A stretch of DNA of 33,858 nt from Acholeplasmatales bacterium (GCA_017449215.1 JAFSJY010000005.1:1-33858), one strand, 5' to 3'; shown: positions 14,185 through 33,618, counted from the stretch's first letter. Notes: generated by a model from the sequence alone, not told the origin. Numbers and translations are program-made.

Positions 14185-15608
14185 TATAATGTTTCTCCTT
14201 TACTTAAATCTTCTTTGATTTCACTTATAGAATGATATCTATTATTTAAATTGATATCCATACATTTAACACATATCTTTGATATATAGTCATCAGTTGT
14301 AATAGCAACTTCACCATTATATATAAAGTTAATTATATAGCCTATACCATAGATATCACTTTGAGCTGTATATTGACTTAGCTTTCTAATTGCCATATCT
14401 GTTAGGGTTGATCTTTCACCTTGTTCTGTTTTAGTTTTAGTTAGATTAACTTCTGATTTAGCTAAACCAAAATCAGTAATAACAAGCTTTATTTCATTAT
14501 CATTGATTTGTTTAATCATTACATTACCTAATGATAAATCTCTATGTAGTATTCCATGGTTATGTAGGTATTCCATTCCATCTATTAATTGATTTATTAA
14601 TGATAATCTTTCCTCTTTAGACAATGCATGAGTATTAATATAATCTAGAATATTTGAATCACAATAATCCATTATATATTCTAGCTTTAATTCATTATAT
14701 GAATATACCTGTAATAGGTTAGGATGATTTACTGATTTCATTAATTTAAATTCATCTTCAAATCTAGATATATCTACTGTTCTTGTTGATTCAAGCTTCT
14801 TTACAGCAAATATTTTATCTAATGAAGGTACATATACCTTATAAATAGATGCAAATTGACCTTTACCAATACATTCTAATATTTCTGTATCTATTAATAT
14901 TTCATCAATCTTTTTAAATGAATAATGAGAATAATATTTAGATGAGAAATATAAATCTAATATATAAATAATTGTTGTTAATAACCCTATTAATTCAAAA
15001 ACCAATATATCATGCCAATAAACCTTAAAATGTACTACTTCAAATGATAATATTCCTATATTAAATATCCCTATTATTATCATTATTAAGCCTAATATGA
15101 ATTTCTTATCATATGAATTTATAAAGAATGAATGATTAAGCTCACATCTATCGATTTTAGTTAGGTTAATAATATCTTTTACTAGAATAAATACTAAGAT
15201 TAGAGATACAGCGCCTAAAGCAATTAATCCATAATAATCATAGGCTCTAACAAAATCCATTTTGAAAAAGTAATAAACTGTTAAACCTATAAGGGATAAT
15301 AAGCCTAATGTATCAAAGATAACTATTAATAGTTTTAATTGCTTATTCTTTGAATATGTAGATTGATAGAAAAGCAATTGGTTAGTATTATATGATACTT
15401 CTACTGTATGTCTTTTTCTTTTAAATACTAATAAAACTATAAAAGAAAATAAGAATACTCCAGTTGATGCTAATAATGAATATAATAGCACTAAATTTTG
15501 AGTATTCATTATGTTTAGGTATGCAATTACAATAGCATAAATTCCTAATATTATATAAGCAAGCTTATATACCTTCTTATTATCTTCCCTAATTTTTATC
15601 TTTTCCAT
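14184..15608 (-). CDS. Membrane-bound Ser/Thr protein kinase
   Basis: This 474-residue protein has about six membrane helices in the first ~225 residues and a C-terminal eukaryotic-type kinase domain. Catalytic features are the glycine loop GKGQFASIYKV (from 248), Lys in FAVKKLE, Glu in DEFKLMK, HRDLSLGNVMI (355-365) and DFGLAKS (379-385). All key residues are present, so it is probably active. The usual Gram-positive PrkC/Stk1 has the kinase first, one helix and external PASTA domains. Here the order is reversed with a polytopic membrane part and no external domain. An upstream in-frame TTG at 15653 is rejected because the promoter -10 box overlaps it. The ATG at 15606-15608 is used. The stop overlaps the start of the lipoprotein gene, making a two-gene operon. 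Confidence 0.85.
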   Translation of the reverse strand: MEKIKIREDNKKVYKLAYIILGIYAIVIAYLNIMNTQNLVLLYSLLASTGVFLFSFIVLLVFKRKRHTVEVSYNTNQLLFYQSTYSKNKQLKLLIVIFDTLGLLSLIGLTVYYFFKMDFVRAYDYYGLIALGAVSLILVFILVKDIINLTKIDRCELNHSFFINSYDKKFILGLIMIIIGIFNIGILSFEVVHFKVYWHDILVFELIGLLTTIIYILDLYFSSKYYSHYSFKKIDEILIDTEILECIGKGQFASIYKVYVPSLDKIFAVKKLESTRTVDISRFEDEFKLMKSVNHPNLLQVYSYNELKLEYIMDYCDSNILDYINTHALSKEERLSLINQLIDGMEYLHNHGILHRDLSLGNVMIKQINDNEIKLVITDFGLAKSEVNLTKTKTEQGERSTLTDMAIRKLSQYTAQSDIYGIGYIINFIYNGEVAITTDDYISKICVKCMDINLNNRYHSISEIKEDLSKGETL

Positions 15609-15652
15609 ATCGTCTTTTCCCCGTATCCCTAAAAATCGAAAATAACACGACA

Positions 15653-15681
15653 ATTATAGCATTTTTATAAAAATTAGACAA
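15653..15681 (-). promoter_or_regulatory. Sigma-A-type promoter of the kinase-lipoprotein operon
   Basis: On the minus strand TTGTCT (15676-15681) is separated by exactly 17 bases from TATAAT (15653-15658). Transcription should begin near 15645, giving a leader of about 37 bases before the kinase ATG. Confidence 0.75.
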
Positions 15682-15696
15682 TATGGCAACTTAAAT

Positions 15697-15737
15697 AAAA
15701 GAAAACCATAGGACTTTGAGAAATTTTTCCTATGGTT
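15697..15737 (-). terminator. Rho-independent terminator after the DUF262/DUF5655 region
   Basis: On the minus strand AACCATAGGA (15728-15737) and TCCTATGGTT (15704-15713) form a 10-bp stem around a 14-base loop, followed by TTCTTTTATTT. It follows the stop at 15744 and marks the end of the three-gene operon at 16299-22810. Confidence 0.8.
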
Positions 15738-15743
15738 AAAATA

Positions 15744-16298
15744 TTATTGAATTTGTTTTAATGCTGAAATTAATATTTCAACAACCTTATTTTTATCTGT
15801 CTCTTCATCAACATAAACTCTATAATTTAAAGCCCATAAGTATGAATCAGGAACTTTTTCACCTATTAATAAAGTCTCATCTTCAGGCACTCTAGTTTGA
15901 ATTAATAATTTATTCTTTTGTAAGTGGAATTCACAGATGTTTTTTCCGTTAGAATTCTTTAATGAGATATAATTTGGAGTCGCATCTTCATATACTTCTG
16001 GTATTCTTTCTTTCATTTTAGAATAAATATCATTATGAAGATTAATAATTTCAGGACTCTTATTTTCTAAATAAGCTTCCATACTATATTTAGGTTCTTC
16101 AGCATTATCACCAAGAATCATTTTTGTTAATTTGTGATATCTTTGGTATAGAGTTTCGTCAGGTTCAATTGAACCTCCCAAATCAACTATTGCTTGTCCA
16201 ACTAAAGAACGCTTTGATGGGTTAGAATTACTAGGAACATCAGTATTATTAGTTAAATCTACAATTCTTAAAGTACCATCAAAATTAGTACTTCCGTG
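15744..16298 (-). pseudogene. DUF5655-like tail separated from the DUF262 gene by one stop codon
   Basis: This reading frame is in phase with the upstream DUF262/DUF1524 gene and separated from it only by the TAA at 16299-16301. It runs open from 16298 to the stop at 15744 (about 184 residues). There is no ATG; the first candidate start is a TTG at 16179-16181 without a ribosome binding site. The C-terminal ~110 residues (from about NLHNDIYSKMKERIP through LWALNYRVYVDEET) resemble DUF5655, a small domain often found at the end of DUF262 proteins. The best reading is that a single longer protein has been split by a nonsense change, or that the stop is read through. A sequencing error is also possible. 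Confidence 0.6.
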
Positions 16299-18965: not shown

Positions 18966-18972
18966 GGTTTTA

Positions 18973-18978
18973 CCCTCC
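18973..18978 (-). promoter_or_regulatory. Ribosome binding site deciding the DUF262 gene start
   Basis: GGAGGG on the minus strand lies 8 bases before the ATG at 18963-18965. The alternative ATG at 18978-18980 overlaps the site itself and cannot use it. Confidence 0.7.
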
Positions 18979-18980
18979 AT

Positions 18981-19910
18981 TTAAATTAATAATGAATAGT
19001 CCTTATTTTTATCCTTAAATTTAGCTATATTTTTACTATATATAATACTATTTTCAAAATTCGAAAAATCATAATTAACTATAGATAGATAATAAATCGT
19101 ATTTAGTAGCATTAATGATGAAGCCTTTTTATTAGAATAATACTTTCCATGCATTGAAGTATGTCTATTTACATCCTTATTCGTTCTAATGCTTATATCA
19201 TTATTAAAATCATGATTAATATAAAGCATATTTATGTTTTCGTTAATCATAAGCATAATTATATGTTTTTCAGTAATTCTAGAAAAATCAATATGTTTTA
19301 TTAAATCAACAATTGGTTGCAATAAACCATTTCTTTTAGTACAACCTTTATTTTCTAAATAAAAAGAAGTCAAATCATCAACTATAGAAATCAATCCTAA
19401 ATTACACAATGCATAATTTTCATTGAAAAATGAATCAAAAGTTTGACTATATAATAACTTATGCTTTTCAGGAAGTATATTTAATGTATCTTTCTTAAGC
19501 ATTAGCAATAATTCATTTGTAAAATGATTAATCATATAGTTGTCAAACTGAACCTCAGAAACATCTTCTTTTGTTATTTTTCTTAATTCGTCAATAGAAA
19601 TATTATAAGGAAAAATCCAAAAACATTTGCTTAGCACTTTATAATAATCGAACCATGATAAAACACTATTAGGATTATTAAGTGCCTTTTCTACTGATTC
19701 TTTAAAAGGTTGCAAGGCATTATTAATTACATCTCCAATATGTTTAATAGGTTCATAATATTCTTTGATACGTTGGCTAGCTTCAGCCAATGAAGCAGAC
19801 AAGGGCTCAATACTTTTTCTCATCTGCTCCATTATTGCTTTTGTCATATCTGTTAATTGTTTTAATGATTCTGAATAAACGAAATGATCAGTGTTATCGT
19901 TCATAAACAA
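18981..19910 (-). CDS. Uncharacterised protein with R-x4-H motif (HEPN-like candidate)
   Basis: This protein of about 309 residues is predicted helical. The first ~80 residues look like an amphipathic/coiled-coil region (many Gln, Glu, Lys, Ser), followed by a helical core. Near the end is NRHTSMHGKYY, an R-x4-H arrangement (R249, H254) followed by Gly, which matches the catalytic signature of HEPN ribonucleases and related R-x4-HG proteins. No family is firmly recognised. The start is uncertain: a TTG at 19910 is 8 bases after GAGGAG, while the ATG two codons later is 6 bases after AGGA. It lies between the nuclease-helicase and GmrSD-like genes with almost no spacing, so it is an integral part of that system. 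An RNase effector or a structural adaptor are both possible. Confidence 0.55.
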   Translation of the reverse strand: MFMNDNTDHFVYSESLKQLTDMTKAIMEQMRKSIEPLSASLAEASQRIKEYYEPIKHIGDVINNALQPFKESVEKALNNPNSVLSWFDYYKVLSKCFWIFPYNISIDELRKITKEDVSEVQFDNYMINHFTNELLLMLKKDTLNILPEKHKLLYSQTFDSFFNENYALCNLGLISIVDDLTSFYLENKGCTKRNGLLQPIVDLIKHIDFSRITEKHIIMLMINENINMLYINHDFNNDISIRTNKDVNRHTSMHGKYYSNKKASSLMLLNTIYYLSIVNYDFSNFENSIIYSKNIAKFKDKNKDYSLLI

Positions 19911-19912
19911 TC

Positions 19913-22810
19913 CTAAATCTCCTCATATTCTGGTAACTCGTTAATTATTTCATTTATTTTTACACTCATCGAAATAATACTCAATGCTTCTTCAATATTA
20001 ACTGCAGCAATATAATATGCTAACAATACAATTTCATTAGCATGAATTTCACTTGTATATTTATATAAAATATCATCCTTAGATATGATACCTGATTGAA
20101 TTAATCTAACTATAAATGTTCCCGTTCCAGTAAATGGATCTAAAATATGAACATCTTTATCAGCTAAAGATTTACCAAATTCCCTATTAATTAACTTTTC
20201 TACACTATGAATAATAAAATCTACAACTTCAGTTGGAGTATACACAATACCAAGTTTTTCAACCTGCTTTTTCAAAGCAACTCTAAAAAATTTATCATAA
20301 AGTTCAATAACTATTTTCTGTTTACCTAAAGAATTATCGACACCTTTCGCTCTTTCACGAACACTATCATAGAACTTTTCTAATGTCTTTTGATCTTTTT
20401 CAATAGAGTTTTTGTCTAATAAATCAAGCATTTCTTGCATTGTTTTAGAAACTGAATTTGATTTCACAAATGAATAATTATCAAACAACGCATCAAATAC
20501 AGGTTTAGTTATCAAATGCTCTGCTAACATTTCGATTGCATCTTCATTGGTTATAGAAGGATTTAAAATACTTCTTAAACTATTTACAAAATTATCAAAA
20601 ATCTTTTTATTTTCTGGTTGTTCTAATAATACCTTAATTTGAGTTATATGACGATTCGCAATATCTGCTACATCTTTAGCCCAATTCTCCCAATAAATTT
20701 TAGAACCACATTTTTTTACAATCTTAGCATAAACCTGATCTTTTAAAACTTCCATATCAAGATCTAATGATAATTTTTTATAAGCTTTATTCTTATTATC
20801 TTCTTGTGATTCTTGATTATCTTCACCATCTCCATATCCAACACCAATGACTTGAATATTATCTGGTTTTCTCTTGTTTAAATCTATTTTATTAATTGTA
20901 TTATTGAATCTATCATCATGGGCTCTTAAAGCTTGAAGCACATCCCAAACAACCTTATATTTTTTATTATCATTTAACGCTTTATCAGGCTCTACTCCTG
21001 CAGGAATTCCAATAGGTAAAATTATATAACCATATTTTTTATTACCATCATATGGTCTTCTCATTACTCTTCCTACACTTTGAATAATATCAATAATGGA
21101 ATTTCTAGGAGATAAGAACATTACAGAATCAAGAGCTGGAACATCGATACCCTCTGATAAACATCTGGCATTAGTTAATATTCTACATCTACCATTTTCA
21201 TTTGAAGCTTTTAACCACTCTAATTTTTGTTTTCTTTCGAGAGAATTCATCTTTCCATCAACATGTTCAATATCAATATCAACTCGTTTATCTGTAACAT
21301 CGTTAATTTTATAATATGTTTCAATCATTTCAAATTTTTGTTTAAATGCTTTTGAATTAGCTATAGTATTGCAGAATGCAACACTTGTTCTCATAGGCTC
21401 AGGATCGGATTTAAAGCTTTCCATATCTTCTTCATAGCATGTTATTTTTGAAAGTCCATTCCAACATCCAATTATTTTTACTGAATCATCAAGATTTAAT
21501 TCATTATTTTTATCAGCCAACAATTTTTGAAGACTTCTATGAACATATTCCTCACTTACAGTTAAAACAATTACTTTATAGTCTGATAGTAATCCTAATT
21601 GAACTGCTTTACCAAATCCCAATCTATGAAATTCAGGTCCATATTTACTCTCATCATCCATTGAACAAATTTCAGCCCCAGCTTCATCTGCTTTGTTTTT
21701 AGATTCATCTCCATATACCTTTGGGGTTGCAGTCATATATAAACGTTTTTTAGCATTTATATTTTCATTGCTATGAACTTTTGTAAATGAAGATTCATCT
21801 TCTTCAGCTAAAGTTACACCTGTTGTTCTATGCGCTTCATCGCAAACGCAAACATCAAATACAATTCCAGATTCTTTTTGGAATTTTGAAACAACATCAA
21901 TTGATTGATATGTTGAGAAAAAGAAAGTGATTTGCTCTTTATTAAAAGAATTGTAATGTTCTATCAACTTCTTTGAATCAGTTGTTGCAGGAATAATTGT
22001 ATCAAGTATTTCATCACTATTCTTTTTACTTGCATTAGAATCAGAACAAATAGCTAACATATTATATGAATATGCTGATTGTTCACTCCATTCAACAAGT
22101 GTTTGGTTTAGCAAAGAAATTGAAGGAACAAAGAAAATTACATTTCCTTTTCCTTTTGTCATCTCTTCAACTATCTTTAAAGAAGTAAATGTTTTTCCAG
22201 TACCACAGGCCATAATTAATTTACCTCTATCGTTATTAGCAAAGCCTTCAACAACATCTTTCAAAGCTCTTTTTTGATGATCTAAAAGATGTTTTATAGC
22301 ACTTCTTTTCATTCCTTCAATATTATTTATATCAAATTGATCCCAATCAATTGCCATACCTTCAAAATCTTGAAGACGTATTCTATTAACAGGAATCATT
22401 TGATTAAGAATAGTGCTTTCTGCGTTGGAACTCCACTTATCAGTAGTAGAAACAATGATTCTTTGAGTAAAAAAACTTATCTGACCATTTGCTTGAAAAT
22501 AAGTAGATGATGCCGACAAAAAAGTATCAACATCTGCTTTTGATACAGATGAATCTTCTGAATAAAACTTACATTGAATTGCACAGTATTCTTCTCTATT
22601 TCTAATTTTCGTTACAATATCTATACCAGTATCAGGCATACCATTTCTATATGGAAATTCATTCCACAACCATACTTGTTCAAATTGGTTAGCATAAGTA
22701 GGTTCTATTTGGAAAAACTTTTTTACAAAGCGCTCAAAAATGGACCCTTTTTGACGCATTGTTGTTGCGTTAGACTCAAAATATTGTAATAAATCTTTAA
22801 ATTTGCTCAT
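19913..22810 (-). CDS. Mrr-nuclease/DEAH helicase, type ISP restriction enzyme lacking most of its methyltransferase
   Basis: This 965-residue protein has the domain order of type ISP restriction-modification enzymes (LlaBIII/LlaGI): an N-terminal Mrr-like nuclease (DTGID 60-64, AIQCKFY 77-83), an SF2 motor (ACGTGKT 201-207, DEAH 324-327, TATP, then NARCLSEGIDVPA and QSVGRVMRRP), a helical coupler, and the beginning of an N6-adenine methyltransferase (GIVYTPTEVVDF, then motif I DPFTGTGTF 891-899). It then stops about 65 residues after motif I. The catalytic NPPY motif and target-recognition domain are absent, whereas family members run to about 1,500-1,600 residues. The next gene starts three bases on with its ribosome binding site inside this end, so the shortened form looks settled rather than freshly broken. 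It may be a modification-independent nuclease-translocase. A -10-like TATAAT lies upstream at 22843-22848. Confidence 0.8.
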   Translation of the reverse strand: MSKFKDLLQYFESNATTMRQKGSIFERFVKKFFQIEPTYANQFEQVWLWNEFPYRNGMPDTGIDIVTKIRNREEYCAIQCKFYSEDSSVSKADVDTFLSASSTYFQANGQISFFTQRIIVSTTDKWSSNAESTILNQMIPVNRIRLQDFEGMAIDWDQFDINNIEGMKRSAIKHLLDHQKRALKDVVEGFANNDRGKLIMACGTGKTFTSLKIVEEMTKGKGNVIFFVPSISLLNQTLVEWSEQSAYSYNMLAICSDSNASKKNSDEILDTIIPATTDSKKLIEHYNSFNKEQITFFFSTYQSIDVVSKFQKESGIVFDVCVCDEAHRTTGVTLAEEDESSFTKVHSNENINAKKRLYMTATPKVYGDESKNKADEAGAEICSMDDESKYGPEFHRLGFGKAVQLGLLSDYKVIVLTVSEEYVHRSLQKLLADKNNELNLDDSVKIIGCWNGLSKITCYEEDMESFKSDPEPMRTSVAFCNTIANSKAFKQKFEMIETYYKINDVTDKRVDIDIEHVDGKMNSLERKQKLEWLKASNENGRCRILTNARCLSEGIDVPALDSVMFLSPRNSIIDIIQSVGRVMRRPYDGNKKYGYIILPIGIPAGVEPDKALNDNKKYKVVWDVLQALRAHDDRFNNTINKIDLNKRKPDNIQVIGVGYGDGEDNQESQEDNKNKAYKKLSLDLDMEVLKDQVYAKIVKKCGSKIYWENWAKDVADIANRHITQIKVLLEQPENKKIFDNFVNSLRSILNPSITNEDAIEMLAEHLITKPVFDALFDNYSFVKSNSVSKTMQEMLDLLDKNSIEKDQKTLEKFYDSVRERAKGVDNSLGKQKIVIELYDKFFRVALKKQVEKLGIVYTPTEVVDFIIHSVEKLINREFGKSLADKDVHILDPFTGTGTFIVRLIQSGIISKDDILYKYTSEIHANEIVLLAYYIAAVNIEEALSIISMSVKINEIINELPEYEEI

Positions 22811-22894: not shown

Positions 22895-22920
22895 AGAAAA
22901 ATGCACTAATTATAGTGCAT
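22895..22920 (-). terminator. Terminator of the expanded Wadjet operon
   Basis: On the minus strand a perfect 8-bp stem (ATGCACTA / TAGTGCAT) with a TAAT loop is followed by TTTTTCTT. It begins only 9 bases after the exonuclease stop at 22929-22931, separating this operon from the nuclease-helicase operon. Confidence 0.85.
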
Positions 22921-22928
22921 AGTAAGCT

Positions 22929-23762
22929 TCATTTCTTTCTTATATATCCTTTTTCTGCTGCATACTCAACATCTAATAATTTCACCATTGTTCCAAACTT
23001 GATAGCAGTGAATTTTTTATTAGAAACATCAACAATAATGCCCTTTCCAAAATTGATATGTAGAATCTCATCTCCGACAGATAGGGTACTTACATCAATT
23101 TTTTCAAAAGCAACATCTTCTTCACATTCATCACTAATTACTGTTGAAATATTCTTAACTATCTTTTTATTTTTTTGCTTATAACAACTTATTAGTTCAT
23201 TAGAATTAATTGCTCCAACATAATAATCATCTAGACTCTTATTCAACATTTTCATTATCATTAATTCATCTTCGGAATCACATAAAGCATTATGTACTTC
23301 ACAGTACTTCTTTCCAGATAAATAAGAATAAACTGACTCAACACCATAACCAGTTCTAAGTCTACCTGTTTGACAATAATCTGCATATTTAGGAAGCTTA
23401 TCATTATATTGTCTATATGCAGCAATTTTCATTATATCGAGCCAAATAAAAGATGCTAATTCTGGTAAATGTCTATAATCAAAGCTTGCATTATATGCAA
23501 AAATATATTTGATGTTTTTTGAGAGAAGGTATTCTTTTATTTTCTTCATTGCTTTACTACGAGAATCTTTTTCAATTTTAGCTCCTCGAGTTTCTTTTAA
23601 AACATAACTAAACATTCCTCCAGTTTTATATTCAGGAGTAAAAAGATAATAGATTCTATCCATTATCTTATAATCATCAAAGTTTGATATAACAATCCCT
23701 ATTGACATAACTTCATCTGACCATGTAGTTTCTGTATCAATTACAGCAAATAATTCACTCAT
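22929..23762 (-). CDS. DEDDh 3'-5' exonuclease fused to a PcrA-type Tudor-like domain
   Basis: Residues 1-175 form a DnaQ-like exonuclease: ExoI IDTET (D9, E11), ExoII YNASFD (N91, D95) and ExoIII HNALCD (H157, D162), all DEDDh residues being present. A linker leads to a C-terminal domain (about 222-277) that reads VGDEILHINFGKGIIVDV...IKFGTMVKLLDVEYA, closely matching the VGDxVxHxxFGxG pattern at the C-terminus of UvrD/PcrA helicases, a Tudor-like domain known to contact RNA polymerase. I do not know this fusion as a described protein. The ATG has a GGAGG site 6 bases upstream and lies 17 bases after the helicase-nuclease gene. The stop is TGA, which shows the standard code is used. It probably trims DNA ends produced by the Wadjet cassette or the helicase-nuclease. 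Confidence 0.8.
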   Translation of the reverse strand: MSELFAVIDTETTWSDEVMSIGIVISNFDDYKIMDRIYYLFTPEYKTGGMFSYVLKETRGAKIEKDSRSKAMKKIKEYLLSKNIKYIFAYNASFDYRHLPELASFIWLDIMKIAAYRQYNDKLPKYADYCQTGRLRTGYGVESVYSYLSGKKYCEVHNALCDSEDELMIMKMLNKSLDDYYVGAINSNELISCYKQKNKKIVKNISTVISDECEEDVAFEKIDVSTLSVGDEILHINFGKGIIVDVSNKKFTAIKFGTMVKLLDVEYAAEKGYIRKK

Positions 23763-23778
23763 AATATTCCTCCTCTCA

Positions 23779-25542
23779 TTACAGTTTTAACACTGCTTTG
23801 GCAACTGCATTCAAGAATTTTTTCGGTCCTCTTACAGATACTTCATACATACTATTATCTCGTGTATTCCATAAAATTCCCTTCTTTAGTCCAAGGCCAA
23901 CAACATAACAAGCACATTGTAAAAAATGTTCATGTGTTAATTCTGAAACAAACTTCAATTCATATACAACGTCATTCTTTAAAACATCAACAAAACCCTC
24001 TGCCCTAAATTTATATTTAGTATAATCTGAAAAATTTATTTCACAATGATGCTGGACATCCTCATTCTTTGTAAACTTCTTACTTAATCTATCAAATATC
24101 TTATTTTTTTCTTCTTCAAGAATAAATGGTCTTACAACTTGATTTCTATATCTATTATGACGTGTTTCCAAAGATACTAAATAAAGAACTTTACCTTCGA
24201 CATCTAATTTTTTAGAGTTCTTTAAATGAAAATCAGGCAAATCATGTAAGGCAACATATAAAGTTATGTCCTTATCAATATTATAATGTTTGAAATAAAA
24301 AGCTTCTTGATAAATTCCAATGCATGGTGATAAATCTATTAATCCATCTGTGCTTTCAACATCTATTATTTCTGAATCTTCGTTCTCAATTTTCTTTATT
24401 GTTAAAAGCTTATAGCAGTCCTCTACACTTTCTTTATATTTAAAATCAAACATTTCAGAAATATTAACTCTAAGTTCTTTTTCATTCCTATCATGATCAG
24501 AGCTTGCTAAAATTTTTTCATTAAGAAGCATATTTTCGCCTTTAACGAAGATTATATTTTTCTTTCCTCTACTAGCGGCAACACAGAAAATATTTCTTAA
24601 TATTTCATATTTCTGATTTGGAAAGCTAAGTCTTGTATACCAATAATCAATGTCAAAGTCAAATAATACACAAGTAGGATACTCTAATCCTTTACTACTA
24701 TCGTATGTAGTAAAAATTGCAGAATCCTTATTTGGATCAACTGATTTAATATTATCATTATCCCTTATGCTTGCATAAACTGTATTTTTATTAAACTTTT
24801 CAGGATACTTCTCCTCAAGAGTATTTAATACTTTAGTAGCATCACCAGTTCTAGCACCTAAGCATAATATATCTTTATTGTCACAATTTGCTAAAAAGTT
24901 AACTACTTCTTTGAAATTCATAAATTTGATATTGCAATCATCATTTACGCCAGTAATTTTCTTTTTCCAAACGAAACCCAACTTATCAGCAAGTTCTTTA
25001 TTTAATCTAAAGCAAATTGAAAATTCCAATATAATATAATCACCAAGAAAAGAATTAATAAAAGTTTTTACATCTAATCTTGTCTTATCATAAATTTTTT
25101 GTTCCATATCACCAACAGCAATCAATTGCATATTTGGATTAGATTCTTTGATGATTTTTAACATATTAGATATTTCTTCATCAATATCTTGGTACTCATC
25201 CATTATCAAAATATCATATTTATCAAATTTGGGTTTTTCACTCAAAAATGTTTGAATGATATCAGATCTTCCAACATTAATACTATTAGCCATTAACCAG
25301 CGATATGCAAATCCATGATAATTAGTAACAAAAGCATTTCTATTTTTTATCTTTGATTTAGCATCAACTTTCAATAATCTATTATATGTTAAATACAATA
25401 TTTTTTTGTTTTTAGGAAGTTGATTACACAAATGTTGAATCGATGTTGTTTTTCCACTTCCTATACATGCTTCAACCAAAATGTTTTTTCCTTTTAAAGC
25501 TGTATCTATAAATAATTGCTGTTCATTAGTTAGTTCAATCAT
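23779..25542 (-). CDS. SF1 helicase with C-terminal RecB-like (PD-(D/E)XK) nuclease domain
   Basis: This 587-residue UvrD-like helicase has Walker A CIGSGKT (26-32), motif II DEYQD (115-119), motif III VGDMEQKIYD, a TTYDSSKGLEYP motif V and motif VI FCVAASRGKKN. It is compact, lacking large 1B/2B insertions. After a linker the C-terminus has a RecB-type nuclease signature: GFVDV (D519), YELK (E528, K530) and Q542 with Y546. Unwinding and cutting of DNA ends is expected, as in AddAB/RecBCD-like enzymes, but with one polypeptide. It follows jetD by 30 bases with a strong GGAAGGAG site, so it is co-transcribed with the Wadjet genes. This gene is not part of the canonical four-gene Wadjet set. 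Confidence 0.8.
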   Translation of the reverse strand: MIELTNEQQLFIDTALKGKNILVEACIGSGKTTSIQHLCNQLPKNKKILYLTYNRLLKVDAKSKIKNRNAFVTNYHGFAYRWLMANSINVGRSDIIQTFLSEKPKFDKYDILIMDEYQDIDEEISNMLKIIKESNPNMQLIAVGDMEQKIYDKTRLDVKTFINSFLGDYIILEFSICFRLNKELADKLGFVWKKKITGVNDDCNIKFMNFKEVVNFLANCDNKDILCLGARTGDATKVLNTLEEKYPEKFNKNTVYASIRDNDNIKSVDPNKDSAIFTTYDSSKGLEYPTCVLFDFDIDYWYTRLSFPNQKYEILRNIFCVAASRGKKNIIFVKGENMLLNEKILASSDHDRNEKELRVNISEMFDFKYKESVEDCYKLLTIKKIENEDSEIIDVESTDGLIDLSPCIGIYQEAFYFKHYNIDKDITLYVALHDLPDFHLKNSKKLDVEGKVLYLVSLETRHNRYRNQVVRPFILEEEKNKIFDRLSKKFTKNEDVQHHCEINFSDYTKYKFRAEGFVDVLKNDVVYELKFVSELTHEHFLQCACYVVGLGLKKGILWNTRDNSMYEVSVRGPKKFLNAVAKAVLKL

Positions 25543-25571
25543 CTTTATAATCTCCTTCCAAAAATTTTATT

Positions 25572-26759
25572 CTAATCTAATATTTCTTGTTCCAATTTAC
25601 AATTGTTATTTAACATATACTTTATAACGTCATAAAACTCCTCAAAACCAGGGTTTGTTAAAAGAATTTTTAAACGTCTAACATCGTTAGCTGTCAATTC
25701 TTTCAAATTATCCTTATTATTCTCAAGTTCTTTTATTCCCATTCTAAAAGGTTTAAAAGGGATACATGTTTTATTCTTTAAATTATTGTAAATCCAGAAT
25801 CCGCCAGCATCAATATCACTAAAATGATAATATTCTGCATTTGGATACATCTCATATATTTTCAATAATAATTGTTGTTTTATAGAATTATGAAATCCTG
25901 CTAAATATATAATTAATGCATCTTCATTTAATCCATAAAATGTAGTTAAATTCTCAACTGTTATAATTCGTTTAATATCTGATTTTATTATTGTCAAATC
26001 CTTTATCATCTGATTAGACATCGAAAAATCATAAGGCAATTGATTCAAATCAATTATTGTATTTTTCAATTTAAAAACAAGCTTGTTCTTAATTAAAGTA
26101 TATGAATAGTTGCTTACTATATTATATGATTTTAAAATATCTTCTTTTTCAATATCCTTTGCTTCAGGATCATAATCTTTAATAATATTGATTATTTTAT
26201 TCTCATACAATACGAACTTTTTTGAATCTCCTAATACTCTAACAGAAAAATCTCTTTTCATCACTTCATCATTTAAAACCAATATTTCATCAATAATTTT
26301 TAGAATAATCATCAATTCTTTTGAATCATTGAAATAAATCTTGGGATATGTATACTTTTCATTTATTTGTTTTATTACATCATCCTTAAATATTTTCATA
26401 AATGAATTAGTTTCATATGAATTCAAAATAGATATCACTTTTTCATTTTCAATACGTGGATTAGGAATACCATGATAATTGTATAATTCATCAACCCTAT
26501 CAACATTTAAAACCAAATATTCAAATTCATTTTCCTTACTAAAATAAGCATTAATATATCCTTTTGATTCTAAGATACGAATTGTTTTATCATTTTGTTC
26601 TCTATATTTATATGAATCTCTAGATTTATAAGATTTCATAATAGGATCATTAACATCAATTTTAATTTTAATATTTCTTTCGCTACCCTCTTTAGATAGT
26701 TTACTATTTTGATATTTAGTAAGTAATTTCTCGATTATTTTATTTTCAAAATCATTCAT
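25572..26759 (-). CDS. jetD: Wadjet nuclease subunit JetD (Toprim, DUF2220-like)
   Basis: Topoisomerase VI-like nuclease of the Wadjet plasmid-restriction system, which cuts circular DNA once the SMC motor has extruded it. Residues ~1-220 are the DNA-binding/arm region. The C-terminal Toprim-like domain has VENLTTF (candidate catalytic Glu) and YYHFSDIDAGGFWIYN from 310, where the D-x-D pair (315, 317) should bind metal. The ATG at 26757-26759 lies one base after the jetC stop and is preferred over an upstream TTG at 26801 inside jetC. The 395-residue length is usual for JetD. Family assignment rests on the Toprim motif combined with the JetA-JetB-JetC gene order. Confidence 0.85.
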   Translation of the reverse strand: MNDFENKIIEKLLTKYQNSKLSKEGSERNIKIKIDVNDPIMKSYKSRDSYKYREQNDKTIRILESKGYINAYFSKENEFEYLVLNVDRVDELYNYHGIPNPRIENEKVISILNSYETNSFMKIFKDDVIKQINEKYTYPKIYFNDSKELMIILKIIDEILVLNDEVMKRDFSVRVLGDSKKFVLYENKIINIIKDYDPEAKDIEKEDILKSYNIVSNYSYTLIKNKLVFKLKNTIIDLNQLPYDFSMSNQMIKDLTIIKSDIKRIITVENLTTFYGLNEDALIIYLAGFHNSIKQQLLLKIYEMYPNAEYYHFSDIDAGGFWIYNNLKNKTCIPFKPFRMGIKELENNKDNLKELTANDVRRLKILLTNPGFEEFYDVIKYMLNNNCKLEQEILD

Positions 26760-26760
26760 A

Positions 26761-29700
26761 TTATTTACCTGCCTCATGGAATAATACAGCCTTATTATCA
26801 ATTTTAGTAATTCCTATTACAGAATCCATATATGGGGCAATACTATAAGTTCTAATACCAGGAACAACAATAAATAATTGAATTGATAACTGTTTATAGA
26901 AATTTAACACTGCTTGAATTCTTCCTTCATCCATGTTGTTAAATGCTTCATCAAAAATTGCCATGCAACATGATTCAATATCTTTCTTATCTTTGCTCAT
27001 TAATTCATCGAAACATGCTGCAATTACAACATAGAAAGGTGTTTGAGTTTCACCACCAGATTTTTCTCTAGCTGTTTCTGAAATATATGATGGTTCCCCA
27101 GCTTCATTAACTACCTTAATATCGTATCTCATATATTCACGATAATCCAAATACTTTTGAATATACTTTTCGTTAGAATCATCGCTTGAAGAAACCTTAT
27201 TAAATAATTCTTCTATCAATTTAGAATCAGCTTCATTCAATGTATCAGTGAATAAATCTTTTGATTCTAATTCTTTCCCTGAAGTTATGATTCTATAATA
27301 CTCACCAAGTTCTTTATTTGCATCACAAACAAATGAATATGTATCACCACTAAATGGATGATTCTTTAAAATTTTATTTATCTTGTTAATCTCTGCTTTC
27401 GCATCTTCTATTCTAGTTCTAATACCTATTAAGAAGACTTGTCTAAATCCTTCTCTACTTCTTTCATATGCCTCATTTGCCTGTTCCCTGAACTTGACAA
27501 TATCCATATTTTTTATCCTATAATATTCATCAATATAATCTTCCAAATTATCAAAAATTGCAGTTAAATCAGGCTTAAAATCTTTAGAATAATTTTGCAT
27601 ACCATTTTGAATACCGTTATATAAGGCACGATTTGTTTTATCAGCTGATTCATAATCTTTTAAAACTAATGATTTATTAAATCTGTCACCATTTCTATAA
27701 TTATTAATTCTATTCAAATAATCAACATAAACTGAGTTATCCTGCTTAATTAGAATAATCTTTTCATCATATTCTTTTTGATTGTTTTTGATAGTTTCTC
27801 GAGCTACATTTATATTATTATCATATCCACCTTTTTCTGTTGCTAAGTTTGTATTTTCTTCATCCAAATCTTTTGCTTCTTTTTCGACATTTCTCTTCGT
27901 TGTTTTAGCACGTTCTAATTTTTGATTTATAGATATTAGAGATTTATTATTTTTATCTTCATCAACCTCTTTAATTAAACGAGCGACTTCTCCAGATAAA
28001 GTGTTTAATTTACTCCATAAATCTTCCATTTCTATCAATCTGAATGCCTGAGTTTTCTTAGATATTTCAATAACTTTAGCAATAGTAGACATTTTCTTTG
28101 TAATGTCAGTTTGTTCCTTATTTATTTCATCTAAGTGATTCAATAATACTTTTTCTTGTTGTTTTAATGAATCCCTTCCGATAAAAGGTATTTCCCAAAC
28201 TGCTTTGTTTATAGCTCTAACACAATAGTTTTTATAAACCATTCCAGTTTTTGTAATTGAAACTTTATGCTTATTTAAATCTTCAACATCATTTACACAA
28301 ATAACATTATTAAGTAATAATTGAGCATATTTTTTTGCATACTTGTTGGAAATATCCAATTTTAAATATAATGAGTCCTTAATTTCTTTTTGCTCCTCAA
28401 TCTTTTTAACATCAACAATACCATAATTATAGATGCCTAATTTATCTTTTACTGACTCATAAATTCTAATGGCATCAATATAATATTGTGGATCAATTAT
28501 TAAATCAAATCTTTGAGTATTCAAATATCCTTCCAAAGCATTCTTCCATTCTTCTTCGCCTTTTTTAATTTCCAAATACTCAACAAAAGGAACAACTTCT
28601 ACATTTTTCTTCTTTGTATCGTAAATACGTTTTTTAATAATGTCAATTAAATTGCTTAATTTAGGATCATAATTTTTAATACCTTTTCGAATATTATCTA
28701 ACTGTCTATTTGTCTCAGTAATATCGGCACTTAATTCTTTAATTCTAATATTCAATTCGGCTTTTAAATTTAAAGCTTTATCACTTGCATCATCTAATTT
28801 TTCTTTATATTTCTTTATTGAATTATTAAAAGATGGATAATCTTTTCTTTGATAATCATCATAAAATGACATCTTTATGCCTACACTTTGAGCTAATACA
28901 TTCTCATCCTTTGCAATCTTATCATAATTACAAATTTGCTCATTTAAAGTATTTAATTCTCTATTTTGAATAGATAATCTTTCCTCTTTTTGCTTTAATG
29001 CTTTAATTTCCTCATTATTTTCGTATGAATATATTTCTTTAGTTAATTCCTCAGATTGCTTTTGCAATGAAGCAATAGTATCTTTATTAGTTGAAACAGT
29101 TTTATCTATTTTATTAATTTCTGATTCACAATCTGATATCAGTTTATTGGCATCTTCAATGTTGATTAATACCTTGACAATATCAAGATATTTCATTATT
29201 TTTTTATTTTCCTGATAATCTTCAGCTTTATGTACAAAGCTCTCTAACGAATTAAGCTTAAGCTCTTCTCTAATAATTATCTTATGAATTTCGTTATAAT
29301 TTCTCATATCAGTTCTTAAACTATCTAAATCAACAGGATTATCTTTTAACAAGAAATTATTAACAAAGCTACTTACCTCTTCAATTGGCTTAAATGCAAT
29401 CGCTTTTGCTAATAAATCATAATACTTATCTTTTGATGATAACTTGAAAACATCTTTAGCCAATATTTCTTTTCTTTTAGAAATATTATATTTATCCCAA
29501 GAATCATAATTATTTATATGATTTTTTAATTCTATATGATTACAAATTTTCCCGTTGGTTATATAATCAGAATCATTAATTCTATACTTATCAGCAAAAT
29601 AGAAATGAACCTGAGGTCTTGTGTTTCCACTAGATAATTCTAAGCAAACTCCGACAACAAAGTACTCATTACCTTTTTCATTTTCATATTCTAATGCTAT

Positions 29701-29973
29701 ATGAGAAATTACTTCGGATTCACTTCTAAAATATTTTTTATTCTCTAAACCAGTCTTATATCTCATATAAGCTTCAAGGGTTCTCTTTGCATTTTGACTT
29801 GCAGCATGATTAAAATGTTTTTCATCTCCAGCAGATAGCACATAATAAATTGCATCTACTAATGTTGATTTACCAGTTCCATTTTCACCTGATAATAAAG
29901 TATTACCTTTTAATTCAATTGTATTGTTAGAGAACAAATGCCAATTAATTAATTTAATCTTCGTTAACTTCAT
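26761..29973 (-). CDS. jetC: Wadjet SMC-like ATPase JetC
   Basis: MukB/SMC-type motor that extrudes loops of plasmid DNA. The N-terminal head has Walker A GENGTGKST (29-37). The centre is long heptad-rich coiled coil, and the C-terminal head has the ABC signature SGGETQTPFY (972-981) and Walker B CMAIFDEAFNNMDE (about 1003-1016). The start was moved to the ATG at 29971-29973, 8 bases after GGGAGG (29982-29987); the GTG three codons upstream overlaps that site. It overlaps the end of jetB by 20 bases. SbcC/RecF-type proteins share the head motifs, but the flanking JetA, JetB and JetD genes identify it. Confidence 0.9.
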   Translation of the reverse strand: MKLTKIKLINWHLFSNNTIELKGNTLLSGENGTGKSTLVDAIYYVLSAGDEKHFNHAASQNAKRTLEAYMRYKTGLENKKYFRSESEVISHIALEYENEKGNEYFVVGVCLELSSGNTRPQVHFYFADKYRINDSDYITNGKICNHIELKNHINNYDSWDKYNISKRKEILAKDVFKLSSKDKYYDLLAKAIAFKPIEEVSSFVNNFLLKDNPVDLDSLRTDMRNYNEIHKIIIREELKLNSLESFVHKAEDYQENKKIMKYLDIVKVLINIEDANKLISDCESEINKIDKTVSTNKDTIASLQKQSEELTKEIYSYENNEEIKALKQKEERLSIQNRELNTLNEQICNYDKIAKDENVLAQSVGIKMSFYDDYQRKDYPSFNNSIKKYKEKLDDASDKALNLKAELNIRIKELSADITETNRQLDNIRKGIKNYDPKLSNLIDIIKKRIYDTKKKNVEVVPFVEYLEIKKGEEEWKNALEGYLNTQRFDLIIDPQYYIDAIRIYESVKDKLGIYNYGIVDVKKIEEQKEIKDSLYLKLDISNKYAKKYAQLLLNNVICVNDVEDLNKHKVSITKTGMVYKNYCVRAINKAVWEIPFIGRDSLKQQEKVLLNHLDEINKEQTDITKKMSTIAKVIEISKKTQAFRLIEMEDLWSKLNTLSGEVARLIKEVDEDKNNKSLISINQKLERAKTTKRNVEKEAKDLDEENTNLATEKGGYDNNINVARETIKNNQKEYDEKIILIKQDNSVYVDYLNRINNYRNGDRFNKSLVLKDYESADKTNRALYNGIQNGMQNYSKDFKPDLTAIFDNLEDYIDEYYRIKNMDIVKFREQANEAYERSREGFRQVFLIGIRTRIEDAKAEINKINKILKNHPFSGDTYSFVCDANKELGEYYRIITSGKELESKDLFTDTLNEADSKLIEELFNKVSSSDDSNEKYIQKYLDYREYMRYDIKVVNEAGEPSYISETAREKSGGETQTPFYVVIAACFDELMSKDKKDIESCCMAIFDEAFNNMDEGRIQAVLNFYKQLSIQLFIVVPGIRTYSIAPYMDSVIGITKIDNKAVLFHEAGK

Positions 29974-30607
29974 CAATGGCACCTCCCTTTTCTGTTAAAT
30001 AACTATTTAATCTATCATTTAATCCGTTGATGTTATCTGATTTTACCACTTGTAAAATTGTTGGATAAATAGCAATAATACTGTCATCAGTAAACTGTTT
30101 AAAATCAAAAGATACAATTTTATATCTTCGCAATAATTTTAATGAGTTCATTAATTCTGTTTTATATGAATCATTTGAAAATATATTTGTATTATTTATA
30201 TTTTCTATTAAATCTGAAGTTTTTACATAAACATCAGATGTATTTGAAGACAATGTTACCTGCTTTTGTCCTGTGTAATACAATAATCTTAGTACTAATA
30301 AAAGAATTGTATCTACCTTTCTTAGTCTTATTCTATTTCTATCTTCTGAAGTTTCAATAAAGAAGACTTTATTATTGTCATCATGAAGCAAATTATAATC
30401 AATCATTGAAAAATAACTTTCAATTAAATCTCTATAATTCAAAATTGAATAATAATCAGTCTTATCGCTTTCGATTCCTCCATAGATGAAGTTATCTTTT
30501 AACAATTTATTACATAAAGTACTAAATGTTTTTTTCTTAATGTCTGACAATTCTTTATAACCATTATAAAAATTTTCAGAAGCTGTTATTTTATCTATAT
30601 TTGCCAT
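29954..30607 (-). CDS. jetB: Wadjet MukE-like subunit JetB
   Basis: This 217-residue protein of predicted winged-helix (kite) type binds the JetA kleisin and the JetC head. The sequence has LLKDNFIYGG (about 35-44), a central dTILLLVLRLLYY helix and a C-terminal LLRRYKIVSFDF wing, in keeping with DUF6063/DUF4194-type JetB proteins. The ATG lies two bases after the jetA stop with AAAGGAA upstream, and its end overlaps jetC. It has no catalytic motif, as expected of a MukE homologue. The subtype cannot be fixed by eye, though the DUF6063 resemblance would point to a type III-like Wadjet. Confidence 0.75.
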   Translation of the reverse strand: MANIDKITASENFYNGYKELSDIKKKTFSTLCNKLLKDNFIYGGIESDKTDYYSILNYRDLIESYFSMIDYNLLHDDNNKVFFIETSEDRNRIRLRKVDTILLLVLRLLYYTGQKQVTLSSNTSDVYVKTSDLIENINNTNIFSNDSYKTELMNSLKLLRRYKIVSFDFKQFTDDSIIAIYPTILQVVKSDNINGLNDRLNSYLTEKGGAIDEVNED

Positions 30608-30609
30608 TA

Positions 30610-32031
30610 TTACTTTTTCCTTTCTATAATGAAATTATCAAACATAATTCCGTATTTTTTATATTGAGTAAGATTAGAATCAAATCGAACTTTATATTCA
30701 ATAGATGAATTTGTACTATAAAGTAAAACTAAGAAATGTTTTAATGAATCTTCCTCTTTTGATTCTTCTATTAATTCTTTGGCTTCAATAAAGTTCTTAT
30801 TCTTCATAGATTCCATTACATATTTGTTAATTGCAAATGAACTATATTTATTATCTTTAAAATATGCTAATGCTAATTCTTCTAGTTTTTCTTGAGGAAT
30901 TTCATTTACGACTTCTGCATCAACATCAGTAACGGTTTTTGATTTGCTTCTAGGCTTATATAATGATGCTTCATCTATATTTCCTAAATCATAAATATTG
31001 AAATCATCAGATTCACCATCTTCTAAGAATTCATCAAAATCAATTTCCGAAATATTCTTTAATATATTATTAATAACTCCATCTATTCTTCCACTATCAT
31101 TTAATAAGAAGTTTGTTCTAGCCTTAGCATTTGATACATATTTTGAATTATTTTTATTAAGAATAGAAATCAATTCATCTATATTTTCAAAGGTATCAAT
31201 CACATAATCAAAAGATTGTCTAAAATAAAGGTCAGCTTCACTAATGTTTTCAACAGTATCTTTACCAGATTTTTTATCCCTAATATATAGTTCTATTAAT
31301 TTAGTTCTATGATCTGTGAATATTAATTCTAATTTATCTTTAATAAACTTCCTATACATCGCAGGGTTATCATGCTGTCTAAGATTTTGAAGAGTTTTTA
31401 AAACAACTTTATCATTGTAATCAACCAATAACTTATCTAATATTTCTACTGGAGTTAAATATGGATTACTTAATAAACCACTTAAATATTTTTTTACAAT
31501 ATTATTAACTCCACGCAATAATGAAACCAATTGTTTTGTCATTGATACAATTTGTTCTGTTATACCAACAGCTTGGTCAATTGTAAAATTCTTTACAGCA
31601 TTATATATATTGTAAACATAACCATATAATTCATTTTGATTAGTTCTGTTTTTAGTTATTTCAGCCATTGCTTTTAACAACAATATAGCATTTTCATCTA
31701 CCATATAACTAATATTAAAATTTGAATCTTCCTCATCGTTTAACCACCCTGTGTTAACAAAATATCTGATTTTATCAGAAGCCAATCTTTTAATATCAAT
31801 CTCACTAATATCTTCAGCTCCATTTGTATCATCATCATAAACAACAGTTGTAGGATGCTCATTGTAGTAACTAGTTATCCAATTTATCATTTCTTCTCTA
31901 GTTGCTGTATTGTTGACATTTGCTTCAATGTTATTGTTGATAATTGATAATAAATCATAATTAATTTCTCTATTTTTATTTGTAAAAACATTGAAAAATT
32001 TTGGATTAATATCTGTAAAAAAATTATCCAC
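30610..32031 (-). CDS. jetA: Wadjet kleisin subunit JetA (MukF-like)
   Basis: This 473-residue kleisin bridges the two JetC heads. The N-terminal FFNVFTNKNREINYDLLSII segment resembles DUF5716-type JetA proteins. A helical middle and an acidic low-complexity linker (about 355-395, DDFNIYDLGNIDE region) precede the C-terminal head-binding part. The GTG at 32029-32031 is chosen because GAAGGAGGT lies 6 bases upstream; an upstream TTG at 32073 would put that site inside the gene. This is the first gene of the six-gene operon and faces the divergent WYL regulator. Co-directional, overlapping JetB, JetC and JetD genes support the call more than any single motif in this protein does. Confidence 0.8.
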   Translation of the reverse strand: MDNFFTDINPKFFNVFTNKNREINYDLLSIINNNIEANVNNTATREEMINWITSYYNEHPTTVVYDDDTNGAEDISEIDIKRLASDKIRYFVNTGWLNDEEDSNFNISYMVDENAILLLKAMAEITKNRTNQNELYGYVYNIYNAVKNFTIDQAVGITEQIVSMTKQLVSLLRGVNNIVKKYLSGLLSNPYLTPVEILDKLLVDYNDKVVLKTLQNLRQHDNPAMYRKFIKDKLELIFTDHRTKLIELYIRDKKSGKDTVENISEADLYFRQSFDYVIDTFENIDELISILNKNNSKYVSNAKARTNFLLNDSGRIDGVINNILKNISEIDFDEFLEDGESDDFNIYDLGNIDEASLYKPRSKSKTVTDVDAEVVNEIPQEKLEELALAYFKDNKYSSFAINKYVMESMKNKNFIEAKELIEESKEEDSLKHFLVLLYSTNSSIEYKVRFDSNLTQYKKYGIMFDNFIIERKK

Positions 32032-32037
32032 AAAAAC

Positions 32038-32046
32038 ACCTCCTTC
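32038..32046 (-). promoter_or_regulatory. Ribosome binding site deciding the jetA start
   Basis: GAAGGAGGT on the minus strand lies 6 bases before the GTG at 32029-32031, close to a perfect match to the 16S rRNA 3' end. It rules out the longer TTG-initiated frame. Confidence 0.8.
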
Positions 32047-32154
32047 AATAAATAATCTGGTTTCTTCTATCAATTATTTCTTTATGCTTTTATTTTACTA
32101 TAAAAAGGTAAATAAATGAAGTGCTTATACCACTACTTATTAATTATTTTCTAG

Positions 32155-32171
32155 TTGTATAATTTATATAA
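32155..32171. promoter_or_regulatory. Near-palindrome in the jetA/regulator intergenic region (operator candidate)
   Basis: TTGTATAATTTATATAA is symmetric over 17 bases except for one pair. It shares TTGTA and the A/T core with the second palindrome at 32220-32236. Both lie between divergent genes, so they may be binding sites for the regulator encoded at 32252. The region is AT-rich, so chance symmetry must be considered. Confidence 0.4.
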
Positions 32172-32202
32172 AAATTGGCTTTAAATATGGATTTTTTTGT
32201 TT

Positions 32203-32208
32203 TATAAT
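32203..32208 (+). promoter_or_regulatory. -10 box of the WYL regulator gene
   Basis: TATAAT on the plus strand lies 44 bases before the ATG, with only a weak TTTAAA at the -35 position, as expected of a regulated promoter. The palindrome at 32220-32236 covers the expected transcription start. Confidence 0.5.
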
Positions 32209-32219
32209 GTAATTAATAG

Positions 32220-32236
32220 GTTGTAGTATATACAAC
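32220..32236. promoter_or_regulatory. Operator candidate at the regulator's transcription start
   Basis: GTTGTA and TACAAC form a perfect 6-bp inverted repeat with a 5-base spacer, immediately downstream of the -10 box and just before the AAAGGAGA ribosome binding site at 32238-32245. Occupancy would block transcription, suggesting autoregulation. Confidence 0.5.
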
Positions 32237-32251
32237 TAAAGGAGATTAGCT

Positions 32252-33307
32252 ATGGAAAAGAAAATTACTATTTCAGACAATTTATATAATAAAATTTTAA
32301 ATGATAAAGAGGATTTTGGTTACATTGGAAGTAATAATGATTTTTATTGCGATATCATTTTAAACACCTATGATTACGACAATCCATATAAACAAATGGA
32401 AAAAATAATTAATCTTCTTTCAGGTCGTACTAAAGAATGTAGTAACAATGAAATAATTGAAACAATAAAAGAAATGAAGAATGATTATCAATATAAAGAT
32501 TGGATGACCCAAATAGCTATTTCGATCGTAAAATTATCAGAGACATCTTATCCTTTAGTAGGTGATAGAAAAGAGATTTTCATTCGCGAAACAGAAAAAA
32601 CAAATGGAAATTTAGAAAAAATATTAAATGAATTTGCTGCTTCTTCTGCATCTGAAATTTACAAAAACATTCTACTAAAATATATATCTTACCCAGCATA
32701 TATTAGAGAACAAATTATTCATCAAAAAAATTATAAAGAATTGAACGAATGTATAAAAAAGAAAATTAAATGTAAGATTGTCACAGTTAAAGGAAATACA
32801 TTCATTATCGAACCATACAAAATGCTTCCAGGTAAAGATGAAGGTCATAATTATTTAACATGCTACTCTACTAGCGATTCAGGTAAATATAATAGGAGCA
32901 TACAAAGTTATAAACTTTCTACTATAGCAAATGTATATAAACTATTTGAACCATGCTCATTATCTGAAGATGAACTATCATTAATATCAACAAGATTAAG
33001 TGAAAATGGACCTGCATATATTAGTTCTGAACTTAATGATTATGAAATAGAATTTGATCATCGCGGTCAAGCACTGTTCAATTCAATAGAAAAAGATAGA
33101 CCTAAAAGAATCTCAATTGAGCCAGGAAAAATAGAATATTACAATGATAAGCCTCAACAATATTTAATATACACTTTAAGATGCACAGAGTTTCAAATAC
33201 TAAATTATCTAAAACAATTTAGCTATCATGTTAAAATACTAAATAATGATAATTTAAAAAAGAAACTAATGGAATATTATGAAAAGGCCTATAAGCAATT
33301 CAATTAA
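32252..33307 (+). CDS. Ribbon-helix-helix/WYL-domain transcriptional regulator
   Basis: This 351-residue predicted DNA-binding regulator is divergent from the Wadjet operon. Residues 1-40 (KKITISDNLYNKI, then FGYIGSNNDFYCDII) look like a ribbon-helix-helix DNA-binding unit. A helical middle leads to a WYL-type domain (about 165-245) with FIIEPYKMLPGKDEGHNYLTCYS and a following RSIQSYKLSTI stretch; the canonical W-Y-L is here N-Y-L. WYL regulators of defence loci such as BrxR and CapW keep them off until a nucleic-acid signal is sensed. RHH rather than winged-helix DNA binding is a variation. AAAGGAGA lies 6 bases before the ATG. It is the only complete plus-strand gene in the window and ends at its own terminator. 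Confidence 0.75.
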   Translation: MEKKITISDNLYNKILNDKEDFGYIGSNNDFYCDIILNTYDYDNPYKQMEKIINLLSGRTKECSNNEIIETIKEMKNDYQYKDWMTQIAISIVKLSETSYPLVGDRKEIFIRETEKTNGNLEKILNEFAASSASEIYKNILLKYISYPAYIREQIIHQKNYKELNECIKKKIKCKIVTVKGNTFIIEPYKMLPGKDEGHNYLTCYSTSDSGKYNRSIQSYKLSTIANVYKLFEPCSLSEDELSLISTRLSENGPAYISSELNDYEIEFDHRGQALFNSIEKDRPKRISIEPGKIEYYNDKPQQYLIYTLRCTEFQILNYLKQFSYHVKILNNDNLKKKLMEYYEKAYKQFN

Positions 33308-33570: not shown

Positions 33571-33618
33571 CCGAATCCTAAGTTGGAATGATCGGTTCGA
33601 ATCCGGTTGGGACTGCCA
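33571..33618 (+). tRNA. 3' half of a tRNA (Arg-CCU-like), probable attachment site
   Basis: The T-arm is canonical: stem ATCGG (33591-33595), loop TTCGAAT (33596-33602), stem CCGGT (33603-33607). It is followed by an acceptor 3' strand TGGGACT (33608-33614), discriminator G and encoded CCA (33616-33618). Upstream, TCCTAA followed by GTTGG fits an anticodon loop reading CCU and the 3' anticodon stem. The matching 5' acceptor strand (AGTCCCA or a wobble variant) and D-arm are absent upstream. A tRNA fragment from the anticodon loop to CCA is the usual scar of tyrosine-recombinase islands. The isoacceptor assignment is tentative; G73 is also found in other tRNAs. Confidence 0.6.

What the first reader, a model, noticed from the sequence alone, without database searches (positions are those of the whole stretch)
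22929..33307. Wadjet operon extended by a helicase-nuclease and an exonuclease-Tudor fusion, with an RHH/WYL regulator
JetA, JetB, JetC and JetD are followed, in the same operon and before a single terminator, by an SF1 helicase with a RecB-like nuclease and by a DEDDh exonuclease. Canonical Wadjet has four genes: SMC loop extrusion and one cut in circular DNA. The two added enzymes could degrade the linearised product completely, and the divergent WYL protein could gate expression. Seen directly: operon spacing, motifs, shared terminator. Known: Wadjet mechanism. Inferred: cooperation.
Basis: partly seen in the sequence, partly recalled or inferred. Interest (0 to 1): 0.88.

Follow-up and report, generated by a model that had tools for sequence, protein, structure and literature searches.

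The report
Wadjet operon with hitchhiking helicase-exonuclease pair
A bacterial anti-plasmid system (Wadjet) is here followed in the same gene string by two DNA-degrading enzymes, but in other bacteria those two enzymes travel together, often as one protein, almost always without Wadjet, so they look like an independent DNA-destroying unit that landed behind it.

Summary
The anatomy is real. An intact type I Wadjet (JetA-B-C-D, catalytic residues kept) is followed on the same strand, 29 nt and 16 nt apart, by a UvrD-type helicase fused to a RecB-like nuclease (HEL) and a DEDDh exonuclease (EXO), then a terminator. The reading "extended Wadjet" does not hold as a recurrent system. HEL is absent from all 54 other genomes of the family and from 390 of 395 in the class; in another family it is absent from 64 of 68 genomes with JetD. 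Of 34 other HEL loci inspected, one (L004) has Wadjet nearby, with an unrelated penicillin-binding-protein gene between. HEL and EXO are instead partners of each other: one fused protein in 17 of the 34 loci and adjacent genes in 8, in Clostridia and mycoplasma-type genomes. Several fused forms end in a transmembrane helix; the window's EXO ends in a weak Tudor-like segment. Best account: a horizontally acquired, self-contained DNA-end-degrading pair that came under Wadjet's promoter in a defence island. Help in degrading JetD-cut plasmids is plausible but unsupported beyond co-orientation. The WYL domain of the divergent gene is weakly supported; RHH is not.

The parts
30610..32073 (-). jetA (kleisin), type I Wadjet; likely true start GTG near 32028
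   Evidence: PF18982 2e-62, PADLOC JetA1 5e-61
29954..30607 (-). jetB (KITE)
   Evidence: DUF4194 1.5e-23, PADLOC JetB1 1e-43
26761..29982 (-). jetC (SMC ATPase)
   Evidence: PADLOC JetC1 2e-245; Walker A, signature and Walker B residues invariant in alignment
25572..26801 (-). jetD (toprim nuclease); likely true start ATG near 26759
   Evidence: JetD_C 5.7e-19, PADLOC JetD1 8.6e-98; E283, D329, D331 invariant
23779..25542 (-). HEL: UvrD-type SF1A helicase (residues about 1-345) with C-terminal RecB-like PD-(D/E)XK nuclease (about 455-587)
   Evidence: AAA_19 2e-14, UvrD 3e-8, PDDEXK_3 1.5e-4; invariant G28SGKT, D115EYQD, S324RGK, D519, E528-K530, Q542; AlphaFold model aligns to UvrD at Z 21.8 and over helicase plus nuclease to AdnA/AddA/RecB
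22929..23762 (-). EXO: DEDDh 3'-5' exonuclease domain (about residues 5-180)
   Evidence: PADLOC DEDDh 1.1e-10; D9, E11, D95, H157, D162 invariant; Foldseek best matches are DEDDh exonucleases such as 3'hExo
22932..23090 (-). EXO C-terminal Tudor/CarD-RID-like segment, weakly supported
   Evidence: PcrA_UvrD_tudor E=7e-4 on the isolated segment, below curated cut-off; low AlphaFold confidence
22901..22920 (-). intrinsic-terminator-like stem and T-run after EXO
   Evidence: fold z-score -4.0
32252..33307 (+). divergent WYL-domain protein, putative regulator
   Evidence: PADLOC WYL 2.3e-8, residues 156-346; no Pfam match
32152..32238 (.). operator-like inverted pair TAGTTGTATA (32152-32161) / TATACAACTA (32229-32238) in the jetA-WYL divergent region
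   Evidence: function inferred

Best explanation
The locus is an intact type I Wadjet operon behind which a self-contained two-enzyme DNA-degradation unit (HEL-EXO) has been inserted and brought under the same transcription. HEL is a UvrD-type helicase with a C-terminal RecB-like nuclease; EXO is a DEDDh 3'-5' exonuclease. Most likely HEL opens DNA from an end or gap and its nuclease cuts the unwound strand, while EXO removes 3' ends; the two act as one machine (inferred from motifs and from natural fusion). Elsewhere the machine occurs without Wadjet. Here it is probably a second, independent DNA-destroying layer of a defence island that may incidentally clear linear products made by JetD (inferred, not shown).
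For: HEL and EXO are one continuous protein in 17 of 34 other HEL loci inspected and adjacent same-strand genes in 8. All helicase, nuclease and exonuclease catalytic residues are invariant. HEL is absent from 54 other family genomes and from 390 of 395 class genomes, while the best relatives (50-59% identity) are in Clostridia, which points to horizontal acquisition. Of the 34 other HEL loci with flanks, only L004 has Jet genes nearby; other neighbours include UDG, valS, a Mur-ligase-type gene, dnaG and PBP genes. Of 11 other JetD loci of the class none has HEL. Co-transcription is indicated by 29- and 16-nt gaps, Shine-Dalgarno sequences and a single terminator. HEL aligns to UvrD and, over both domains, to AdnA, AddA and RecB. 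The downstream window genes are also defence-like (type ISP restriction half, GmrSD, Ser/Thr kinase).
Against: L004 places a fused HEL-EXO 1.25 kb downstream of an independent JetABCD on the same strand; by a rough estimate such adjacency is unlikely at random (about 0.002 over 30 loci), though defence islands are not random. JetD and HEL co-occur in 4 of 8 HEL genomes of L004's family against 1.8 expected (P = 0.08). I have no biochemical data for HEL or EXO, and their role as defence, repair or plasmid genes is undetermined.
Confidence: 0.62

Rival explanations
1. Extended Wadjet: JetD linearises the captured circle and HEL-EXO, expressed from the same operon, degrades the ends so that the plasmid cannot be rejoined; HEL-EXO is a dedicated Wadjet effector in this lineage.
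For: Same strand, 29-nt and 16-nt gaps, shared terminator; the enzyme types fit linear DNA; L004 has HEL-EXO close behind an unrelated JetABCD.
Against: No other tight JetD-HEL operon among 11 other JetD loci in the class and two plasmid loci; 64 of 68 JetD-bearing genomes in L004's family have no HEL; in L004 a PBP gene lies between; 33 of 34 HEL loci have no Wadjet nearby. The host genome also has an AddA-like RecB-family helicase candidate of its own.
Confidence: 0.2
2. Housekeeping DNA-repair or recombination enzyme: HEL-EXO is a minimal AddAB-like end-processing enzyme, and its place behind jetD is chance.
For: Chromosomal metabolic and repair neighbours in Clostridia; presence in reduced TGA-as-Trp genomes.
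Against: Patchy: 8 of 299 genomes in L004's family and none of 54 relatives of the window, unlike a core repair gene; in the window it sits among defence-like genes.
Confidence: 0.15

Closest known systems
Type I Wadjet (JetABCD / MksBEFG)
   Same: All four subunits in order, catalytic residues kept, PADLOC JetA1-D1 matches
   Different: Two further enzyme genes in the transcription unit and a divergent WYL-type gene
UvrD/PcrA and AdnAB/AddAB/RecB helicase-nucleases
   Same: SF1A helicase core (Z about 20-22 to UvrD/PcrA) and a RecB-like C-terminal nuclease; whole-chain alignments to AdnA, AddA and RecB
   Different: Far shorter (587 aa), one motor, partner is a DEDDh exonuclease rather than a second AddB/RecC-type subunit; NCBIfam AddA matches only locally
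Gabija GajB
   Same: UvrD-like helicase; PADLOC GajB models match at up to 7e-15
   Different: No GajA partner; HEL carries its own nuclease and pairs with EXO
SNIPE (membrane-bound anti-phage nuclease, described in PMC12904381)
   Same: Analogy only: several HEL-EXO fusions end in a transmembrane helix
   Different: Different enzymes; the window's own EXO has no transmembrane helix

Membership tests
Type I Wadjet | jetA, jetB, jetC, jetD in one operon, type I models | tested here: met
Type I Wadjet | JetD toprim acidic residues and JetC ATPase motifs intact | tested here: met
   E283, D329, D331; G37K38S39T40, S975-G976, D1011-E1012 invariant
Type I Wadjet | restricts circular plasmids | not testable with these tools
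   needs plasmid transformation assays
Six-gene 'extended Wadjet' | HEL and EXO recur in the jetABCD operon of other genomes | tested here: not met
   only L004 has them nearby, with a PBP gene between; none of 11 other class JetD loci, none of 2 plasmid loci, and 64 of 68 JetD genomes in L004's family lack HEL
Six-gene 'extended Wadjet' | co-transcription with jetD, no internal terminator | tested here: inconclusive
   spacing and terminator agree; no RNA data
AddAB/RecBCD-type end resection enzyme | SF1A helicase with C-terminal RecB-like nuclease | tested here: met
AddAB/RecBCD-type end resection enzyme | second AddB/RecC-type subunit | tested here: not met
   partner is EXO, a DEDDh exonuclease, in fused and two-gene loci
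Gabija | GajA OLD-type nuclease next to GajB | tested here: not met
   neighbours are JetD and EXO
RHH/WYL regulator | C-terminal WYL domain | tested here: inconclusive
   PADLOC WYL 2.3e-8, no Pfam match
RHH/WYL regulator | N-terminal ribbon-helix-helix | tested here: inconclusive
   no RHH profile match up to E=1; the RHH of RspWYL1 is itself described as atypical (PMC6547453), so divergence could hide one

The most novel reading that the evidence does not exclude
HEL-EXO is a little-described family of compact, often membrane-tethered helicase/nuclease/exonuclease machines that destroy DNA ends, and this lineage has wired the machine to Wadjet so that circle cutting and full degradation come from one transcript.
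Probability: 0.2. Interest if true: 0.72.

Novelty: new variant of a known kind. Interest (0 to 1): 0.45.

Why it matters
If HEL-EXO degrades Wadjet products, it would answer what happens to a plasmid after the single JetD cut. Even if not, the survey describes a compact helicase-RecB nuclease-DEDDh exonuclease family, fused or paired, in Clostridia and mycoplasma-type genomes, with predicted membrane anchors in several members, for which I found no described function and which is directly testable.

Tried and rejected
Six-gene Wadjet as a conserved system: rejected on recurrence. Gabija: no GajA. Phage origin of HEL: no match in phage records, and no relative among viral contigs with a pattern scan limited to six peptides. 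EXO, JetC and WYL in viral contigs: none. WYL in plasmids: none. JetD in phages: none. phmmer of EXO and WYL against solved structures: nothing useful. AlphaFold for the Tudor-like tail: low confidence. The Pfam and Foldseek matches of HEL do not separate UvrD from RecB-type relatives; VIA-align rows with rmsd near 27 reflect domain rearrangement and only suggest that both domains are present. Promoter scan: chance level. Search for another copy of the tRNA-like 3' end in the genome: none. Literature: a text search for Wadjet with JetD, helicase and exonuclease gave three papers; I read passages of one, which did not describe such an extension; the library is limited to open-licence papers. 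A search for papers on the HEL-EXO domain combination was malformed and not repeated.

Full report
Observation. The - strand of 22929-32073 carries jetA, jetB, jetC, jetD, HEL and EXO in that order. JetA to JetD match Pfam and PADLOC type I Wadjet models strongly, and their catalytic residues are kept. HEL has AAA_19/UvrD helicase and PD-(D/E)XK nuclease matches; EXO has a DEDDh match. The HEL motifs GSGKT, DEYQD, GDxxQK, SKGxE and VAASRGK, the nuclease residues D519, E528-x-K530 and Q542, and the EXO residues D9, E11, D95, H157 and D162 are invariant across 19 HEL+EXO sequences. An AlphaFold model of HEL (mean pLDDT 78) aligns to UvrD at Z 21.8 over residues 1-342, and over both domains to AdnA, AddA and RecB. 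The EXO domain resembles 3'hExo and polymerase proofreading domains.

Operon. The gap from jetD to HEL is 29 nt and from HEL to EXO 16 nt, each with a strong Shine-Dalgarno sequence. A stem with a T-run follows EXO (22901-22920, z = -4.0). The terminator scan finds no more sites than shuffles do, so the support is position and fold, not count. Co-transcription is therefore likely but unproven.

Recurrence. HEL was not found in any of 54 other genomes of the window's family, and in 5 of 395 genomes of the class including the window's own, while JetA occurs in 115 of 395. I retrieved neighbourhoods of up to 20 kb for most of the JetA loci. JetABC was present in about 79, but a JetD model matched in only 11 besides the window and L004; none of those 11 has HEL or EXO. 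The nearest Wadjet, L076, lies in the same family (JetD 44%, JetC 38% identical). Two plasmid Wadjets also lack them. In the family of L004, JetD occurs in 68 of 299 genomes and HEL in 8; both occur in 4, against 1.8 expected (P = 0.08).

HEL loci. Thirty-four HEL loci other than the window were inspected with flanks: 15 from named genome contigs, 4 more from L004's family, 13 from TGA-as-Trp genomes that I read as mycoplasma-type, and 2 actinobacterial plasmids. By my count HEL and EXO are one reading frame in 17, adjacent same-strand genes in 8 and HEL alone in 9; some are fragments or contig-end copies. Wadjet genes occur only in L004, where JetABCD ends 205 nt before a penicillin-binding-protein gene that precedes the fused HEL-EXO. 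Neighbours elsewhere include uracil-DNA glycosylase, valyl-tRNA synthetase and a Mur-ligase-type gene, DnaG, and other unrelated genes. HEL-EXO is thus a module of its own. Fusion in one lineage and separate genes in another is good evidence that the two proteins act together.

Tails. The fused proteins end variably: nothing, a basic tail with hydrophobic residues, or a predicted transmembrane helix (L009, L016, L161, L162 and four mycoplasma-type loci), in some preceded by an HTH_17 domain (L009, L016 tested). In the window EXO ends in a weak Tudor/CarD-RID-like segment instead. Membrane tethering is an inference from hydropathy.

WYL. The divergent gene matches a PADLOC WYL model but no Pfam model, and no RHH profile matches its N-terminus. 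WYL proteins accompany many defence systems (PMC9122601), and an RHH-WYL architecture is known in RspWYL1 (PMC6547453). A 10-nt inverted pair lies in the divergent region. Gating of Wadjet by this protein is untested.

Mechanism. Published work describes JetABC as a shape sensor, modelled as loop extrusion, that triggers JetD to cut circular DNA and spare linear DNA (review PMC10586767). The fate of the cut product is the natural place for HEL-EXO to act, but the window's genome also has an AddA-like candidate (C56, below the model's cut-off). I therefore rate cooperation at about 0.2 and an independent DNA-degrading pair as more likely.

Limits. Genomes searched were one per species and drawn from larger groups; HEL searches used one protein query; the genome-contig scan used six peptide patterns, so it favours close relatives. 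Whether HEL-EXO defends, repairs or serves plasmids is unknown. Gene starts for JetA and JetD are my reading of the sequence.

Noticed in passing
L068, L070, L071, L073-L075, L077-L088 (JetABC loci of the window's family): In 18 JetABC loci without a jetD match, a SepF-like cell-division gene sits directly after jetC (mostly overlapping or within a few nt; 67 nt in L087). This suggests a domesticated Mks condensin coupled to SepF.
   Followed up: partly
L067 (own genome, contig C82): The same genome has a second JetABC set with no jetD match in the ORF list.
   Followed up: partly
L009, L016, L161, L162, L164, L169, L170, L176: HEL-EXO proteins (L164: the separate EXO) end in a hydrophobic predicted transmembrane helix, in L009 and L016 after an HTH_17 domain.
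   Followed up: partly
33594-33618: A tRNA-like 3' end (T-arm and acceptor end with CCA) with no complete tRNA found by ARAGORN, near a transposase-like start at the contig end; it may mark an attachment site of a mobile element (inferred).
   Followed up: partly
1996-3129 and 64-1767: A rolling-circle replication initiator and a full UvrD-type helicase near the left end suggest that the contig is part of a mobile element.
   Followed up: no
14184-22810: Further defence-like genes: Ser/Thr kinase, GmrSD nuclease, and a type ISP restriction-helicase half without a methyltransferase domain match.
   Followed up: no
L095:8995-14982: Another jetD is followed 26 nt later by an SNF2 helicase and a protein with an RNA polymerase alpha C-terminal domain.
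   Followed up: no
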